From positions 744,001 through 808,000 of the forward strand of contig NZ_QGHA01000001.1 in NCBI RefSeq assembly GCF_003148845.1: a DNA stretch of 64,000 bases, given 5' to 3'. The notes beneath the pieces are model-generated. The model had not been told where the DNA came from. It saw only the letters and a program-made list of their open reading frames with translations, and ran no database searches. A program made the translations under genes and the position numbers. This DNA comes from Mucilaginibacter oryzae (lineage in GTDB: Bacteria; Bacteroidota; Bacteroidia; Sphingobacteriales; Sphingobacteriaceae). Positions 59,187 through 64,000 of this stretch are shown piece by piece (positions within the stretch are counted from its first letter, which is position 1; each line of letters opens with the position of its first letter).

Positions 59187-59831
59187 TCAATACACCAAAT
59201 TTAACACCGCGAAAAATACAAACTGCGTTATCAGCAAAACCGTAGCGACAATGCTTTGCCGCTTAAACTCAAATTTTTCAAAAACAAAAAGCAACACGCC
59301 GCTCACCAAAAACCAGCATACGTAGTTTTTGATCGGGATCATTCCACCCGCCCAATGCCAGTAATCAAAACGGATGGCGATGGGTTCTATCAAAACGTCG
59401 AGCAGGGTTAAAATAGCGGCTCCTGTTATCACCCTTAGATATTTATTGCCTATCCGGCTCCGTTTTAACGTAACCCCGGCCGAGTAAACCAGCAGGAACC
59501 AGTTTACACCTATCAGCAAGGGCACCTCAAACAGTTTCCAACCCAAAGTGCCGCCATAGTTATAATTACCGAACAACCAACCGGTATGCACACCAATCAA
59601 TTCGGCAATAATTCCCGCACATGCCGTGATTAACGCGAATACAGCAAATTTTTTATTCAAGCTATCATGACTGTATATAACCACCGCCAGCATCAGCAAC
59701 AAATGCCAGTGCACCAATGCCATAAACAGCACATTTAACGAAGGAAGAATAAAACCGATAAGCCCTACGAAATGAAACAACAGAATGATAGTAATACATA
59801 GCCACTTTTTATCCGATAGCATTACATTCAT
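59187..59831 (-). CDS. CruF-like carotenoid 1,2-hydratase (DUF422 membrane protein)
   Basis: A 214-residue protein with about six or seven membrane helices. GIIAELIGVHTGWLFGNYNYG and LGWKLFEVPLLIGVNWFLLVYSAGV, then LLDVLIEPIAIRFDYWHW, are the conserved blocks of the carotenoid biosynthesis protein (CruF/DUF422) family. In cyanobacteria and Deinococcus this family hydrates the psi-end C1',2' double bond. Its ATG overlaps the TGA of the upstream glycosyltransferase (ATGA). It is the last gene of the operon. Confidence 0.88.
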   Translation of the reverse strand: MNVMLSDKKWLCITIILLFHFVGLIGFILPSLNVLFMALVHWHLLLMLAVVIYSHDSLNKKFAVFALITACAGIIAELIGVHTGWLFGNYNYGGTLGWKLFEVPLLIGVNWFLLVYSAGVTLKRSRIGNKYLRVITGAAILTLLDVLIEPIAIRFDYWHWAGGMIPIKNYVCWFLVSGVLLFVFEKFEFKRQSIVATVLLITQFVFFAVLNLVY

Positions 59832-60916
59832 ATTTTGCGCCCCTTCCAGGTGGTGGTTTTAGTAAGGTATTTTTGAACAGATACAACCGCAACCACCAGC
59901 AAGTTAAACATTTGAACAGGGTGCAGTACAATATTATACCCGGCTTTTTGCCCTGCCGAAAGCGAGATCATGATCCGCGTTAGCAAAATCAACCCCACAG
60001 TAAATAGGATCAGCGGCAGGTTAAGCGTTGTTAAAATAAACAACGGCCCGCCAATAATGAGGGTAATGTATATTAAAAAGCCTATAATACTGTAATTAAA
60101 CGCGGCCAGGAAGTTTTTGCTGAAACCGTTGATGGCTTCGTTATACCCATGGTACATGCGGCAACTGATCATGCCATTGGCCAGCAGGGCCTCGCCGTTA
60201 TAATTTTCGGCTTTGATGAGGCGCATGATTTCCACATCTTCAACAACTTTATTTTTAACTGCTTTGTGCCATTGCTGTTGATGATACACGTCGGCGTCAA
60301 ACAGCATAAACTGCCCGCTGGCAGCCGCTACCGAGGCGTTTTTTACCAGGTATACCAAACGTAACGGCAGCAGGTTGAGCAGTATATAGTGCATGAGGGG
60401 TACTACGGCATTCTCACCTAAAGTTAACATGGTTTGGTTGGTAAACAGGCTCAGTAAGCTTAAGCTGTGCAGGTGCATGCGGTGTACCGCGCTGTTAATC
60501 AGTTTTACATACACCTGTTCGTCGGCATCCAGAAACAGCAGGTATTTGCCATCGGCCAGTTGGGCTAACTGGTGGCAGGCATGGTTTTTTCCTATCCAGC
60601 CTTCGGGTAGCGTGGTGCCTTTAATAACTTTAAACCGGGGGTGGGCTGCGGCGAAATCCGAGCAAACTTTATAGGTATCGTCGGTCGAGTCATCATCGTA
60701 AATAATTACCTCGTAGTTTTGATAATCCTGCTGATGGATGGACTGCAACAGCGGCAGGATATTGGCCGCTTCATTACGGGCCGGTATCAGGATAGATACT
60801 TTATCTGTATAATGTTTGCTGATATGCGGCAGTTTGGGGTTGGAGATATAATTGAACAGCGTAACTGCAAACCGCAGAATGATGAAAAACAGGGTTATTA
60901 AGATGGCTATTGTCAC
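59828..60916 (-). CDS. CruC-like carotenoid glycosyltransferase (GT2, membrane)
   Basis: A 362-residue GT2 enzyme with one N-terminal helix and C-terminal membrane segments. VSILIPARNEAANILPLLQSI opens the GT2 domain, LLFLDADEQVY holds DxD, and VVEDVEIMRLIKAENY holds the ED motif. Organisation and context match CruC/CruG, which glycosylates the 1'- or 2'-hydroxyl of a carotenoid. The start is GTG. It lies 3 bases after the acyltransferase gene and overlaps the CruF-like gene by 4 bases. Confidence 0.86.
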   Translation of the reverse strand: MTIAILITLFFIILRFAVTLFNYISNPKLPHISKHYTDKVSILIPARNEAANILPLLQSIHQQDYQNYEVIIYDDDSTDDTYKVCSDFAAAHPRFKVIKGTTLPEGWIGKNHACHQLAQLADGKYLLFLDADEQVYVKLINSAVHRMHLHSLSLLSLFTNQTMLTLGENAVVPLMHYILLNLLPLRLVYLVKNASVAAASGQFMLFDADVYHQQQWHKAVKNKVVEDVEIMRLIKAENYNGEALLANGMISCRMYHGYNEAINGFSKNFLAAFNYSIIGFLIYITLIIGGPLFILTTLNLPLILFTVGLILLTRIMISLSAGQKAGYNIVLHPVQMFNLLVVAVVSVQKYLTKTTTWKGRKI

Positions 60917-60919
60917 GCT

Positions 60920-61546
60920 TTATATATCAAATTCGGTTTGAAGTGCTTTTGATGTTTCAAAATGCTGCTGGTAAGCCTGTTGCAATGCGGTTACCTCCTT
61001 TCCCGAATAATATCCGGTGTCGTTTTTAAGATAAACTGTTGCCGTAGGCTTTTTTTGTTTAAAGTACTGAATAAAAGTTGAGGCGAAAAGCAATTGGAAA
61101 TTTCCCTGCGCTTTTTCAATGATCCGCATAACGCCCTTTTCAAATTTTATGTTGGTAACAAAGTTAGCATATAACTTGCCTTGCGGAAACATCAAAACCA
61201 AATTTGCCGGCGCGGCAAGCAACTCCGCCGCGTAATCAAGCGATTGCAGGATGCTTTTTGAATCTTTCTTTACCGAAAACGCACCCACATATTTCAAAAA
61301 ATTCTCTTTGCGGGCAGTTTCCTCAAGTATCATTACATGCAATTTTTTCTTCAGCAACAGGTCATTAACACAGTACAGGATCAATCCGTCCCAAAAGCTA
61401 AAGTGATTGGCAATGAGCAATATCGATTTGTCTTGATCAACCGTTATCTCATTAAACAACAGTTCATGAAACTCCTGTTTCACTATCCGTTTAATATAAT
61501 AGTGAACTATGCGGTTCAGAAAGTAGTTGCTTTGATTACGGATCAT
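60920..61546 (-). CDS. PlsC-type acyltransferase (CruD-like), copy 1
   Basis: A 208-residue lysophospholipid-acyltransferase-family protein. ANHFSFWDGLI is the NHx4D catalytic motif and LMFPQGKL replaces the usual FPEG. The remaining substrate helix is ordinary. Basic N-terminus, no clear signal. It is a paralogue of the next gene upstream. Next to a carotenoid glycosyltransferase, it probably esterifies the sugar of a carotenoid glycoside as CruD does. General membrane-lipid acylation is the alternative. Confidence 0.84.
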   Translation of the reverse strand: MIRNQSNYFLNRIVHYYIKRIVKQEFHELLFNEITVDQDKSILLIANHFSFWDGLILYCVNDLLLKKKLHVMILEETARKENFLKYVGAFSVKKDSKSILQSLDYAAELLAAPANLVLMFPQGKLYANFVTNIKFEKGVMRIIEKAQGNFQLLFASTFIQYFKQKKPTATVYLKNDTGYYSGKEVTALQQAYQQHFETSKALQTEFDI

Positions 61547-62423: not shown

Positions 62424-62427
62424 TTTT

Positions 62428-63237
62428 CTATTTAACTAAATACTCATCCAATGCCCGGGTAACCAGCCAGTGCCCGAGCGCTACCTCATGCACTTCAGCA
62501 TCATCCAGCATCCTTAAAAAAGGCATCGCTGCTGATTTGGGGAACAACAAATCGTGTTTGCCAAATATCAGCATGCATTTTATTTTATGCCGATTAATTT
62601 GCTGCGCGATGTGCTTAACATCCGGTTTCAGCTGGCGGATCAAATTTAGGGTATAATAAGTATCCAACCGTTTTTGTTCGGTATCAATTTCATTATAGGC
62701 TATATGGTAAAGGCTTTCGTCAATAAAGCGCAGTTTTTTTAAACTTTTAATGATGAAAGGCGCCAGCCATTTACTTTTGGTTGCCGTACGGAATATTCCG
62801 CGGCCAAGCTTATTGTGCAGTATAAATTGGAAGCCTTTAAAAACAGCCAGGCCATCGGGCGCCATCAGGATCACTTCATCAATCAACTCTGCATATTCTT
62901 CAACCAAAATTAAAGCGATGTTGGCACCGATAGAATAACCCATTACCGAAAACCGCTGCCTGCCGTAAAGCTTAAACCATTCTTCTGTATAGCTGCGTAC
63001 CATGGTTTTGGGCATACCTGCCAGGATCTGCTGCTCTGTCCAGCCGTCAAGTTTACTCTCTCCGTGAAAAAAATGATCGAAACCGTAAATATGGTATTGT
63101 GGGATGATAGATTGCTCAAGCACATGAAACTGCTTACCCGTCATTCCGTAACCATGAAAGGCCAGCATGGGTTTCTGTCCCGTACCATATTCATGAAAAT
63201 GCGCTTTGCCCAGGCCGGGCAGATGTAAATAACCCAT
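62428..63237 (-). CDS. Alpha/beta hydrolase in the carotenoid operon
   Basis: A 269-residue alpha/beta-hydrolase-fold protein. The nucleophile elbow is GYSIGAN, the acidic residue is in FGKHDLLF and the catalytic His in LGHWLVTRAL. GYGMTGKQFHVLEQS and GFDHFFHGES are the usual early blocks. No signal peptide. It lies 4 bases upstream of an acyltransferase gene. It could release or transfer acyl groups on the carotenoid glycoside, or supply acyl acceptors. Substrate unknown. Confidence 0.85.
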   Translation of the reverse strand: MGYLHLPGLGKAHFHEYGTGQKPMLAFHGYGMTGKQFHVLEQSIIPQYHIYGFDHFFHGESKLDGWTEQQILAGMPKTMVRSYTEEWFKLYGRQRFSVMGYSIGANIALILVEEYAELIDEVILMAPDGLAVFKGFQFILHNKLGRGIFRTATKSKWLAPFIIKSLKKLRFIDESLYHIAYNEIDTEQKRLDTYYTLNLIRQLKPDVKHIAQQINRHKIKCMLIFGKHDLLFPKSAAMPFLRMLDDAEVHEVALGHWLVTRALDEYLVK

Positions 63238-63327
63238 TAAGGCAATATTAATAATTTATGTTTGGTAGCAGCAATTAAATTATTGATGCTGATAATGGCT
63301 GCCCTACTGCATAAGAAAATATCGGTA

Positions 63328-64000
63328 TCATCCAACCATTTCACTAACAATTTTCGCCGATAACAAGCAAAGCGGGATTCCCCCACCAGGGTGCACACTT
63401 CCCCCGCAAAAATATAAGCCTTTAATTTTTGATGATTTGTTGGCATGCCTCAAAAATGCCGCGAACTGATTATTTGAACTGGTGCCATAAAGCGAACCCT
63501 GGTACGATGAAGTGCGGCTTTCGATACTTCGCGGATCGAGGATGCTTTCGTCAACTATCAAACCACTAATATCTTCACCCAATAACCTGCTTAACTTAGC
63601 TAATATATTTTTTCGCGCGGTAGCTATCAATGCATCCCAATCCTGACCTATATTAGCCGGAACATTGATCATCACAAACCAGTTTTCACAACCTTTGGGG
63701 GCATCATCGTTTTGATACTTCGAACTGATGTTTAAATATACTGTAGGATCGTGATAGATACTCTTATCCTGCCAGATGGCATCAAACTCCGCCTTATAAT
63801 CGGCACTAAAGAATATATTATGCAGATCGAGTTGCTTAAACTGTTTTTTGATCCCCCAATAAAATATCAACGCGGAACTACTTCGCTCCTGGCTCAATAT
63901 TTTTTGGGGTTTTAGCTGAGGAGATTTTTTGAGCAGGTGATGATAAGTAAACCATACGTCCATGTTGGATATTACCATGTCGGTTTCAACCACCTCGTTT
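63328..64000 (-). CDS. CrtI/CrtD-type carotenoid desaturase, C-terminal part (start outside window)
   Basis: The frame is open to the last base, so the N-terminal FAD motif lies beyond the window. About 224 residues are visible: [20 protein letters not shown] is typical of the middle of phytoene-desaturase-like enzymes, and the closing [20 protein letters not shown] is the C-terminal FAD signature. It resembles 1-hydroxycarotenoid 3,4-desaturase (CrtD) at least as well as phytoene desaturase. The CrtD reading fits the CruF-like hydratase encoded downstream. First visible gene of the carotenoid operon. Confidence 0.88.

What the first reader, a model, noticed from the sequence alone, without database searches (positions are those of the whole stretch)
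59187..64000. Predicted operon for an acylated glycosyl carotenoid with two acyltransferases and an alpha/beta hydrolase
Seen: six leftward genes with gaps of 3-5 bases or ATGA overlap over most of the block, encoding a CrtI/CrtD-type desaturase, an alpha/beta hydrolase, two PlsC-like proteins, a CruC-like GT2 and a CruF-like hydratase. Known: CruF hydrates psi-ends, CruC/CruG glycosylates the hydroxyl and CruD acylates the sugar in green sulfur bacteria and relatives. Inference: the strain makes an acyl-glycosyl carotenoid, and the extra acyltransferase and hydrolase would give a tailoring chemistry not explained by the known CruC/CruD pair.
Basis: partly seen in the sequence, partly recalled or inferred. 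Interest (0 to 1): 0.65.

Follow-up and report, generated by a model that had tools for sequence, protein, structure and literature searches.

The report
Carotenoid operon with borrowed acyl-transfer pair
A soil bacterium carries a pigment-finishing gene block, apparently for a carotenoid bearing a sugar and a fatty acid, into which a two-gene fatty-acid-handling unit from another pathway seems to have been inserted; the block is largely a known type, and the inserted pair is the new part.

Summary
The six leftward genes are real: crtD, an alpha/beta hydrolase (ABH), PlsC1, PlsC2, a GT2 and cruF. Two of five junctions are loose (90 and 253 bp). Comparison across 151 genomes of the family shows two units. 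(1) PlsC2-GT2-CruF, with CrtD: 79 of 79 genomes with both CruF and GT2 carry PlsC2; 0 of 16 with only one of them do. This fits hydration, desaturation, glycosylation and acylation of a monocyclic carotenoid, as in salinixanthin, so PlsC2 is the CruD-role candidate. (2) ABH-PlsC1: a separable pair (62 of 70 ABH genes have a PlsC within 155 bp). Elsewhere in the family the pair often closes an ACP/ketosynthase/reductase cluster. A distinct ABH clade sits beside carotenoid-block genes in 17 of 151 genomes; 71 of 78 named loci are titled Mucilaginibacter. No pigment chemistry was available.

The parts
63328..64000 (-). crtD, 3' part of a 491-aa 1-hydroxycarotenoid 3,4-desaturase (start lies 803 bases beyond the window; whole gene L002:9329-10804)
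   Evidence: NCBIfam NF042421 645.7 bits against cut-off 500; full frame; in 84 of 85 CruF genomes
62428..63237 (-). ABH, 269-aa alpha/beta hydrolase; Ser102 (GYSIG), Asp229 and His256 (GHW) invariant in 14 aligned orthologues
   Evidence: Pfam PF00561; alignment A1; predicted alpha/beta hydrolase fold, mean pLDDT 84.3; nearest solved relatives by profile a PHB depolymerase and C-C hydrolases at E about 1e-8. Which residues form the triad is inferred from the motifs.
61800..62423 (-). PlsC1, 207-aa PlsC-like acyltransferase paired with ABH
   Evidence: PF01553 42.7 bits; on one side of a 100/99 branch with the PlsC of fatty-acid-synthase-type clusters; NHx4D and FPQG in 68 of 70 named copies, NHx4E and CPQG in the other two
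61547..61799 (.). 253-bp spacer with two pairs of imperfect direct repeats (58 nt at 84%, 50 nt at 72%, spacing 121 to 123)
   Evidence: the PlsC1-PlsC2 gap by alignment ends in named loci is 3 to 306 bp, under 80 in 56 of 62
60920..61546 (-). PlsC2, 208-aa PlsC-like acyltransferase, best candidate for the carotenoid-glycoside acyltransferase (CruD role)
   Evidence: PF01553 39.4 bits; in 79 of 79 genomes with CruF and GT2, 0 of 16 with only one of them, 2 of 56 with neither; NHx4D in 68 of 68 and FPQG in 65 of 68 named copies
59828..60916 (-). GT2, 362-aa family-2 glycosyltransferase with hydrophobic stretches (GTG start)
   Evidence: PF00535 90.2 bits; NCBIfam HpnB 118.8 and CruG 109.3, below cut-offs; hydropathy peaks
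59187..59831 (-). cruF, 214-aa carotenoid 1,2-hydratase family protein
   Evidence: PF04240 100.7 bits against 25; seven hydrophobic stretches; adjacent to GT2 in 77 of 79 genomes that have both
56838..57689 (-). ispH-like neighbour (isoprenoid precursor supply; name recalled, not tested by a family search), conserved beside the block
   Evidence: 59 matching ORFs in 78 named loci by a profile built here; gene orders
56136..56810 (-). crtW-like beta-ring ketolase candidate
   Evidence: NCBIfam NF045690 232 bits, below its cut-off of 350; 42 matching ORFs in 78 named loci

Best explanation
The block finishes the open (psi) end of a monocyclic carotenoid. CruF adds water at C-1', CrtD desaturates C-3',4', the GT2 puts a sugar on the 1'-hydroxyl, and PlsC2 esterifies the sugar with a fatty acyl group, giving a product like non-2'-hydroxylated salinixanthin (keto ring if the CrtW-like gene is a ketolase). 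Into this block a second, separable unit has been inserted, ABH-PlsC1, whose relatives elsewhere in the family close an ACP/ketosynthase/reductase cluster. In the carotenoid block I think this pair carries out a second acyl-handling step on the same glycolipid-like pigment: PlsC1 adds or exchanges an acyl chain and ABH releases acyl from a thioester or ester, as supplier or editor. Shown here: the gene families, intact motifs, signs of purifying selection, the two-unit structure, the tracking of PlsC2 with CruF+GT2, and the pairing and separate ancestry of ABH-PlsC1. Inferred: every chemical step in this strain, the direction of the insertion, and above all that ABH-PlsC1 acts on the pigment.
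For: CrtD in 84 of 85 CruF genomes; GT2-CruF adjacent on one strand 77 of 79; GT2-PlsC2 adjacent 75 of 79. PlsC2 in 79 of 79 CruF+GT2 genomes, 0 of 10 GT2-only, 0 of 6 CruF-only, 2 of 56 with neither. CrtD, PlsC2-like, GT2 and CruF also lie together in loci of two distant families of the phylum (L194, L195), while in 20 fetched loci (of 26 CruF genomes) from other families of the class CruF is beside CrtD in 14 and beside a GT2 or PlsC2 match in none. ABH beside a PlsC in 62 of 70. ABH of the carotenoid type in 17 genomes, 17 of 17 within 3 kb of at least one of CruF/GT2/PlsC2/CrtD, with 289 to 617 bits against 183 or less for the other 53. Trees: carotenoid-linked PlsC1 one clade (96/88), carotenoid-linked ABH one clade (99/99), PlsC1 with the FAS-type PlsC and apart from PlsC2 (100/99). 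crtI (NF058655 773.6 against cut-off 640), a PF00494 synthase and a lycopene cyclase domain gene in the same contig. Experimental precedent, read in passages only: CruF and CrtD of Nonlabens spongiae hydrate and desaturate in E. coli (PMC11855829); carotenoid acyl glucosides with C11-C17 acyl groups in Rhodothermus (PMC5822342).
Against: No chemistry. GT2 relatives are kept, with low pN against high pS, in genomes without CruF, five without a phytoene synthase match. ABH persists without PlsC1 (L061, L099) and with GT2 but no CruF, CrtD or PlsC2 (G131); ABH-PlsC1 persists without GT2 or CruF next to it (L073, L097, L108, L115), so the pair need not act on the acylated glycoside. CrtD is close upstream in only 10 of 77 named loci. 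CruF, GT2 and CrtW-like score below their NCBIfam equivalog cut-offs. CruC and CruD sequences could not be compared.
Confidence: 0.5

Rival explanations
1. ABH-PlsC1 is a lipid acyl-remodelling pair with its own substrate (for example a membrane lipid) that is only co-located and co-transcribed with the carotenoid genes; the pigment is finished by CrtD, CruF, GT2 and PlsC2 alone.
For: The pair occurs in other settings: FAS-type cluster, TolC/membrane-fusion/glycerol-3-phosphate-dehydrogenase-like neighbours, ALDH/SDR-like neighbours (the last two named by eye). 63 of the 79 genomes with PlsC2-GT2-CruF have no carotenoid-type ABH. In L073, L097, L108 and L115 the pair is present without GT2 or CruF beside it. 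Each of 19 genomes of the genus has exactly one good ABH match, at one place or the other.
Against: 17 of 17 carotenoid-type ABH genes of the family set are linked to at least one carotenoid-block gene, and the five-gene order is kept in 58 of 77 named loci, 61 with wider spacing allowed.
Confidence: 0.3
2. ABH is a pigment esterase: it removes the acyl group from the carotenoid glycoside (turnover or chain exchange), and PlsC1 re-acylates.
For: Intact Ser/Asp/His motifs; the predicted fold resembles esterases and monoacylglycerol lipase ABHD6 among many others.
Against: The fold match is generic (TM 0.58 to 0.69 by query length, 12 to 20% identity in the 50 rows listed); related ABH sit in ACP-dependent clusters where no pigment ester is expected.
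Confidence: 0.15
3. The GT2 does not act on carotenoid but on another lipid, so the product is a free 1'-hydroxy (flexixanthin-type) carotenoid.
For: GT2 in 10 of 151 genomes without CruF, five of them (G004, G014, G029, G058, G116, each listed as 99 to 100% complete) without a PF00494 match; pN 0.09 to 0.25 against pS 0.71 to 0.85 in the ten CruF-less pairs printed; nearest NCBIfam model is HpnB, not CruG.
Against: CruF and PlsC2 are adjacent to the GT2 in 77 and 75 of 79 genomes, and PlsC2 accompanies none of the 10 GT2 without CruF; three of the CruF-less GT2 (G004, G029, G046) show changed ED or DxD positions, which fits a changed role there.
Confidence: 0.15

Closest known systems
Salinixanthin-type carotenoid acyl glucosides of Rhodothermus and Salinibacter (PMC5822342, passages read)
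   Same: Monocyclic carotenoid with a glucoside esterified by a fatty acid; glycosyl- and acyltransferase steps proposed there as CruC and CruD
   Different: There no CruF and no clear CrtD were found and cruC lies far from the cluster; here CruF, GT2 and PlsC2 are adjacent and an ABH-PlsC pair is added
CruC/CruD pair of green sulfur bacteria (recalled)
   Same: Glycosyltransferase plus acyltransferase acting after psi-end hydration
   Different: Sequence relation to CruC and CruD was not tested here; two PlsC proteins instead of one acyltransferase
Flexixanthin and myxol gene sets with cruF and crtD (Algoriphagus PMC10784355; Nonlabens PMC11855829; passages read)
   Same: CruF plus CrtD finishing of the psi end
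   Different: The passages read name no glycosyl- or acyltransferase step for those pathways; 20 fetched loci of other families of the class also show none beside CruF
FAS-like cluster SDR/190-aa protein/ACP/KS/FabI-like/AcpS-like/ABH/PlsC in the same bacterial family
   Same: ABH followed directly by PlsC, related sequences
   Different: No carotenoid genes seen in it; separate clades of ABH and PlsC

Membership tests
CruF carotenoid 1,2-hydratase | PF04240 match over the curated cut-off | tested here: met
   100.7 bits against 25
CruF carotenoid 1,2-hydratase | NCBIfam equivalog cut-off for a CruF | tested here: not met
   TIGR03460 77.5 of 154.7; NF041333 51.7 of 300; NF045693 38.9 of 400; that these models are built on other lineages is inference
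CrtD 1-hydroxycarotenoid 3,4-desaturase | NCBIfam equivalog cut-off | tested here: met
   NF042421 645.7 against 500
CruC/CruG carotenoid glycosyltransferase | NCBIfam CruG equivalog cut-off | tested here: not met
   NF045692 109.3 against 600
CruC/CruG carotenoid glycosyltransferase | Presence tied to a hydroxylated carotenoid acceptor pathway | tested here: inconclusive
   79 of 89 GT2 genomes have CruF, 10 do not; five of these 10 lack a PF00494 match
CruD carotenoid glycoside acyltransferase | PlsC-type acyltransferase with NHx4D tied to the glycosyltransferase and hydratase | tested here: met
   PlsC2: 79 of 79, 0 of 16, 2 of 56; NHx4D 68 of 68 named copies. That CruD is PlsC-type is recalled.
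CruD carotenoid glycoside acyltransferase | Sequence orthology to Chlorobaculum CruD | not tested
CruD carotenoid glycoside acyltransferase | Acylates the sugar of a glycosyl carotenoid | not testable with these tools
   Needs pigment analysis of mutants
ABH-PlsC acyl-transfer pair | ABH gene with a PlsC gene next to it | tested here: met
   62 of 70 ABH genes in the family set; 4 bp apart in the window
ABH-PlsC acyl-transfer pair | Associated ACP/KS/reductase cluster | tested here: not met
   The 190-aa marker protein of the cluster has no match in the window's genome; it is in 6 of 19 genomes of the genus

The most novel reading that the evidence does not exclude
ABH-PlsC is a general two-enzyme acyl-delivery cassette that bacteria of this family plug into different pathways: an ACP-dependent fatty-acid-synthase-like cluster in some, and carotenoid glycoside finishing in Mucilaginibacter, where it gives a doubly acylated or unusually acylated glycosyl carotenoid not known so far. 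That each of 19 genomes of the genus has exactly one ABH, at one place or the other, and that one genome (G131) keeps the synthase-like cluster without an ABH of its own but has the carotenoid-type ABH, would mean that the two ABH types can stand in for each other.
Probability: 0.25. Interest if true: 0.6.

Novelty: new variant of a known kind. Interest (0 to 1): 0.42.

Why it matters
It gives a concrete, testable gene set for acyl-glycosyl carotenoids in Mucilaginibacter, points to PlsC2 rather than PlsC1 as the CruD-role enzyme, and shows that the extra hydrolase/acyltransferase is a separable pair with relatives in a fatty-acid-synthase-like cluster of unknown product. It also warns that the adjoining GT2 cannot be taken as carotenoid-specific on similarity alone.

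Tried and rejected
Rejected: one indivisible six-gene operon. ABH-PlsC1 and PlsC2-GT2-CruF separate in relatives, and in one genome (G146) ABH-PlsC1-CrtD and PlsC2-GT2-CruF lie about 114 kb apart. Rejected: PlsC1 and PlsC2 as a recent tandem duplication; they are 34% identical and fall on opposite sides of a 100/99 branch. Rejected: ABH or PlsC1 as decaying genes in the window; motifs are intact and dN/dS is 0.016 to 0.072 against L053 and L056. I first suspected decay from the long PlsC1 branch of the window's genome; the PlsC1 of those two relatives are 92 to 94% identical to it.

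Led nowhere: the fold search with the ABH model listed only generic alpha/beta hydrolases. Paper searches were answered; no listed title is on acyl-glycosyl carotenoids of Mucilaginibacter or on an ABH-PlsC pair, but the library holds open-licence papers only, the listings were capped (for example 20 of 388), and I saw titles and starts of abstracts, plus passages of PMC5822342, PMC2889829, PMC10784355 and PMC11855829. The CruC/CruD work in green sulfur bacteria is recalled. Fisher values ignore relatedness and are not used as evidence. PF00494 covers squalene as well as phytoene synthases, so a match does not prove carotenoids, while the lack of a match speaks against both.

Rows dropped before counts: ABH rows under 120 bits (weak hits of other hydrolases); GT2 rows under 300 bits, except one contig-end piece (G149) that was kept; CrtD rows under 500 bits (CrtI-type); I took as PlsC2 the rows from the top down to 142 bits (81 genomes) and left the lower rows, many of them ABH-adjacent PlsC or further paralogues; the match lists were cut at the bottom by the tool. 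CruF counts include one contig-end fragment (G079, 30 bits). The trees used 40 PlsC and 26 ABH from the fetched loci, not all that exist. Of 26 CruF genomes in other families of the class I fetched 20.

Full report
What is there. On the minus strand the window holds, in the order of transcription, crtD (cut by the window end, complete at 491 aa in the contig), an alpha/beta hydrolase (ABH, 269 aa), PlsC1 (207 aa), PlsC2 (208 aa), a family-2 glycosyltransferase (GT2, 362 aa) and cruF (214 aa). Junctions are 90, 4, 253 and 3 bp and a 4-bp ATGA overlap. Family assignments. Downstream lie a PD-(D/E)XK gene (57937-59124), an ispH-like gene, a crtW-like gene and a hemH-like gene (families of the first and third, the other two names recalled). 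The window is C1:744001-808000 of a 5.9-Mb genome. The closest named relatives of the ABH are Mucilaginibacter (86% identity and down), and 71 of the 78 loci found bear that name, so I take the genus to be Mucilaginibacter.

Two units, not one. I searched the same 151 genomes of the family with each protein and with the squalene/phytoene synthase family. CruF is in 85, CrtD in 84 of those 85, GT2 in 89, PlsC2 in 81. GT2 and CruF lie next to each other on one strand in 77 of the 79 genomes that have both, GT2 and PlsC2 in 75 of 79. PlsC2 is in 79 of 79 genomes with CruF and GT2, in 0 of 10 with GT2 only, in 0 of 6 with CruF only, and in 2 of 56 with neither. So PlsC2 follows the supposed glycosyl-carotenoid route and is the candidate for the CruD role.

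The ABH behaves otherwise. It has 70 good matches in 69 genomes; 62 of the 70 have a PlsC gene within 155 bp. In 17 genomes the ABH is of the carotenoid-linked type (289 to 617 bits, against 183 or less for the other 53 matches), and each of the 17 lies within 3 kb of at least one of CruF, GT2, PlsC2 or CrtD. In 12 of the 20 regions fetched (L013, 14, 15, 19, 20, 22, 23, 25, 28, 29, 30, 32) the pair closes a cluster of an SDR reductase, a 190-aa protein, an ACP, a ketosynthase, a FabI-like reductase and a phosphopantetheinyl transferase. My gene calling showed the ACP in 7 of the 12 (in four others an overlapping frame took its place), and L025 is cut by the contig and shows only the last four genes. 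The names come from family scans of one of these loci, L022, where the 190-aa protein had no Pfam or NCBIfam match. Other settings are a TolC/membrane-fusion/glycerol-3-phosphate-dehydrogenase-like group (L026, L031) and an SDR/ALDH-like group (L021), named by eye from the printed sequences, and pairs without an evident partner. In the PlsC tree carotenoid-linked PlsC1, FAS-type PlsC and PlsC2 form three groups; PlsC1 lies with the FAS-type and L021 (100/99), while PlsC2 lies with the PlsC of four other ABH pairs (100/99) (midpoint root).

Distribution among named relatives. Of 78 loci, 77 have an ABH match. The order ABH-PlsC-PlsC-GT2-CruF within 4.5 kb and with strict spacing is in 58 of 77; three more (L101, L109, L118) have it with wider spacing; seven are cut by a contig end (L082, L088, L098, L102, L117, L126, L129); seven lack parts (L061 and L099 no PlsC1, the latter also cut after GT2; L071 no CruF match; L073, L097, L108 and L115 only ABH-PlsC1, with or without CrtD); L127 and L128 are distant. 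CrtD is within 1.5 kb upstream on the same strand in 10 of 77.

Are the genes in use? In 14 aligned ABH, Ser102, Asp229 and His256 are invariant; of 74 ABH ORFs in the named loci 69 match all three motif patterns, three more differ at one flanking pattern position, and the two distant ones do not match. NHx4D is present in 68 of 70 PlsC1 (E in place of D in the other two) and in 68 of 68 PlsC2. Against two close relatives (L053, L056) dN/dS is 0.016 to 0.072 for GT2, PlsC2, PlsC1, ABH, CrtW-like and IspH-like, with dS of 1 to 3, so the ratios are rough; CruF could not be computed because synonymous sites are saturated, and it is the most diverged protein (66% identity). Against L058, L059 and L063 the computable values run from 0.040 to 0.199.

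The rest of the pathway. The same contig carries a CrtI (NF058655 773.6 against a cut-off of 640), a PF00494 synthase next to it and a lycopene cyclase domain gene around C1:857-861 kb, about 50 kb from the block; a second PF00494 gene lies on C2. In NCBIfam the C1 synthase reaches no phytoene synthase cut-off, so its role is inferred from its neighbours. With the CrtW-like gene (below its NCBIfam cut-off) the expected product is an acyl-glycosyl 3',4'-didehydro-1',2'-dihydro-gamma-carotene, possibly with a 4-keto group, close to the non-hydroxylated salinixanthin of Rhodothermus (PMC5822342, passages). This is inference from gene families.

Results against the reading. GT2 relatives without CruF occur in 10 of 151 genomes; five of these (G004, G014, G029, G058, G116) have no PF00494 match although they are listed as 99 to 100% complete. 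Among the ten CruF-less pairs printed, amino-acid identity is 62 to 84% with pN 0.09 to 0.25 and pS 0.71 to 0.85, so the protein seems to be under selection there; in G004, G029 and G046 the ED motif is changed, and in G029 the DxD too, whereas G014, G116 and G101 keep both. The GT2 may thus have another or a second acceptor. ABH can also persist without PlsC1, and the pair without GT2 or CruF beside it, as listed above.

One ABH per genome. In the 19 genomes of the genus, 14 have the carotenoid-type ABH and five another type; none has both and none lacks it. The 190-aa marker of the synthase-like cluster is in six of the 19: the five with the other ABH type, and G131. In G131 no ABH match was found in the 19 kb around that marker (L181; the cluster genes there were recognised by length only), a FAS-type PlsC lies about 48 kb away (L018), and a carotenoid-type ABH sits next to its GT2 with no CruF, CrtD or PlsC2 match in the genome. 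This hints that the two ABH types may replace each other, but it rests on one genome and on related species.

Wider view. In 20 fetched loci (of 26 CruF genomes) from other families of the class, CruF is directly beside CrtD in 14 and beside a GT2 or PlsC2 match in none (one weak GT2 match several genes away in L170). In two more distant families (L194, L195) a CrtD, a PlsC2-like protein, a GT2 and CruF lie together, and in a third (L196, a region I cut short) a GT2 and CruF. The acyl-glycosyl triple is therefore older than the family or was transferred; the ABH-PlsC1 unit in it is the part seen here only in Mucilaginibacter and close relatives.

Verdict. The main pathway is a variant of a known kind; the ABH-PlsC pair is the new point, with its role on the pigment unproven.

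Noticed in passing
L013, L014, L015, L019, L020, L022, L023, L025, L028, L029, L030, L032: A conserved fatty-acid-synthase-like cluster (SDR, 190-aa protein without family match in L022, ACP, ketosynthase, FabI-like, phosphopantetheinyl transferase, ABH, PlsC, often a TPR-like protein) of unknown product.
   Followed up: partly
G004, G014, G029, G046, G058, G101, G116, G124, G131, G132 (e.g. L033, L034, L050, L051): GT2 kept without CruF, mostly next to ispH/hemH-like genes; five of these genomes have no PF00494 synthase match.
   Followed up: partly
57937-59124: PD-(D/E)XK nuclease family gene (PF14281) between cruF and the ispH-like gene; no tblastn match in the 78 named loci, so probably a strain-level insertion.
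   Followed up: partly
61547-61799: Two imperfect direct-repeat pairs in the PlsC1-PlsC2 spacer; the core TTCGTGAAATTCG occurs six times in the genome, against one for the reversed control.
   Followed up: partly
55814-56203: ORF with an internally repeated peptide stretch between the hemH-like and crtW-like genes, perhaps a non-coding repeat.
   Followed up: no
L002:10898-11449: DJ-1/PfpI-family gene upstream of crtD on the same strand; the PfpI-CrtD-ABH order recurs in L097, L107, L108, L120, L121 and L124.
   Followed up: no
59187-59831: CruF is much more diverged from L053 and L056 (66% identity) than its neighbours GT2 (84 to 86%) and PlsC1 (92 to 94%).
   Followed up: no
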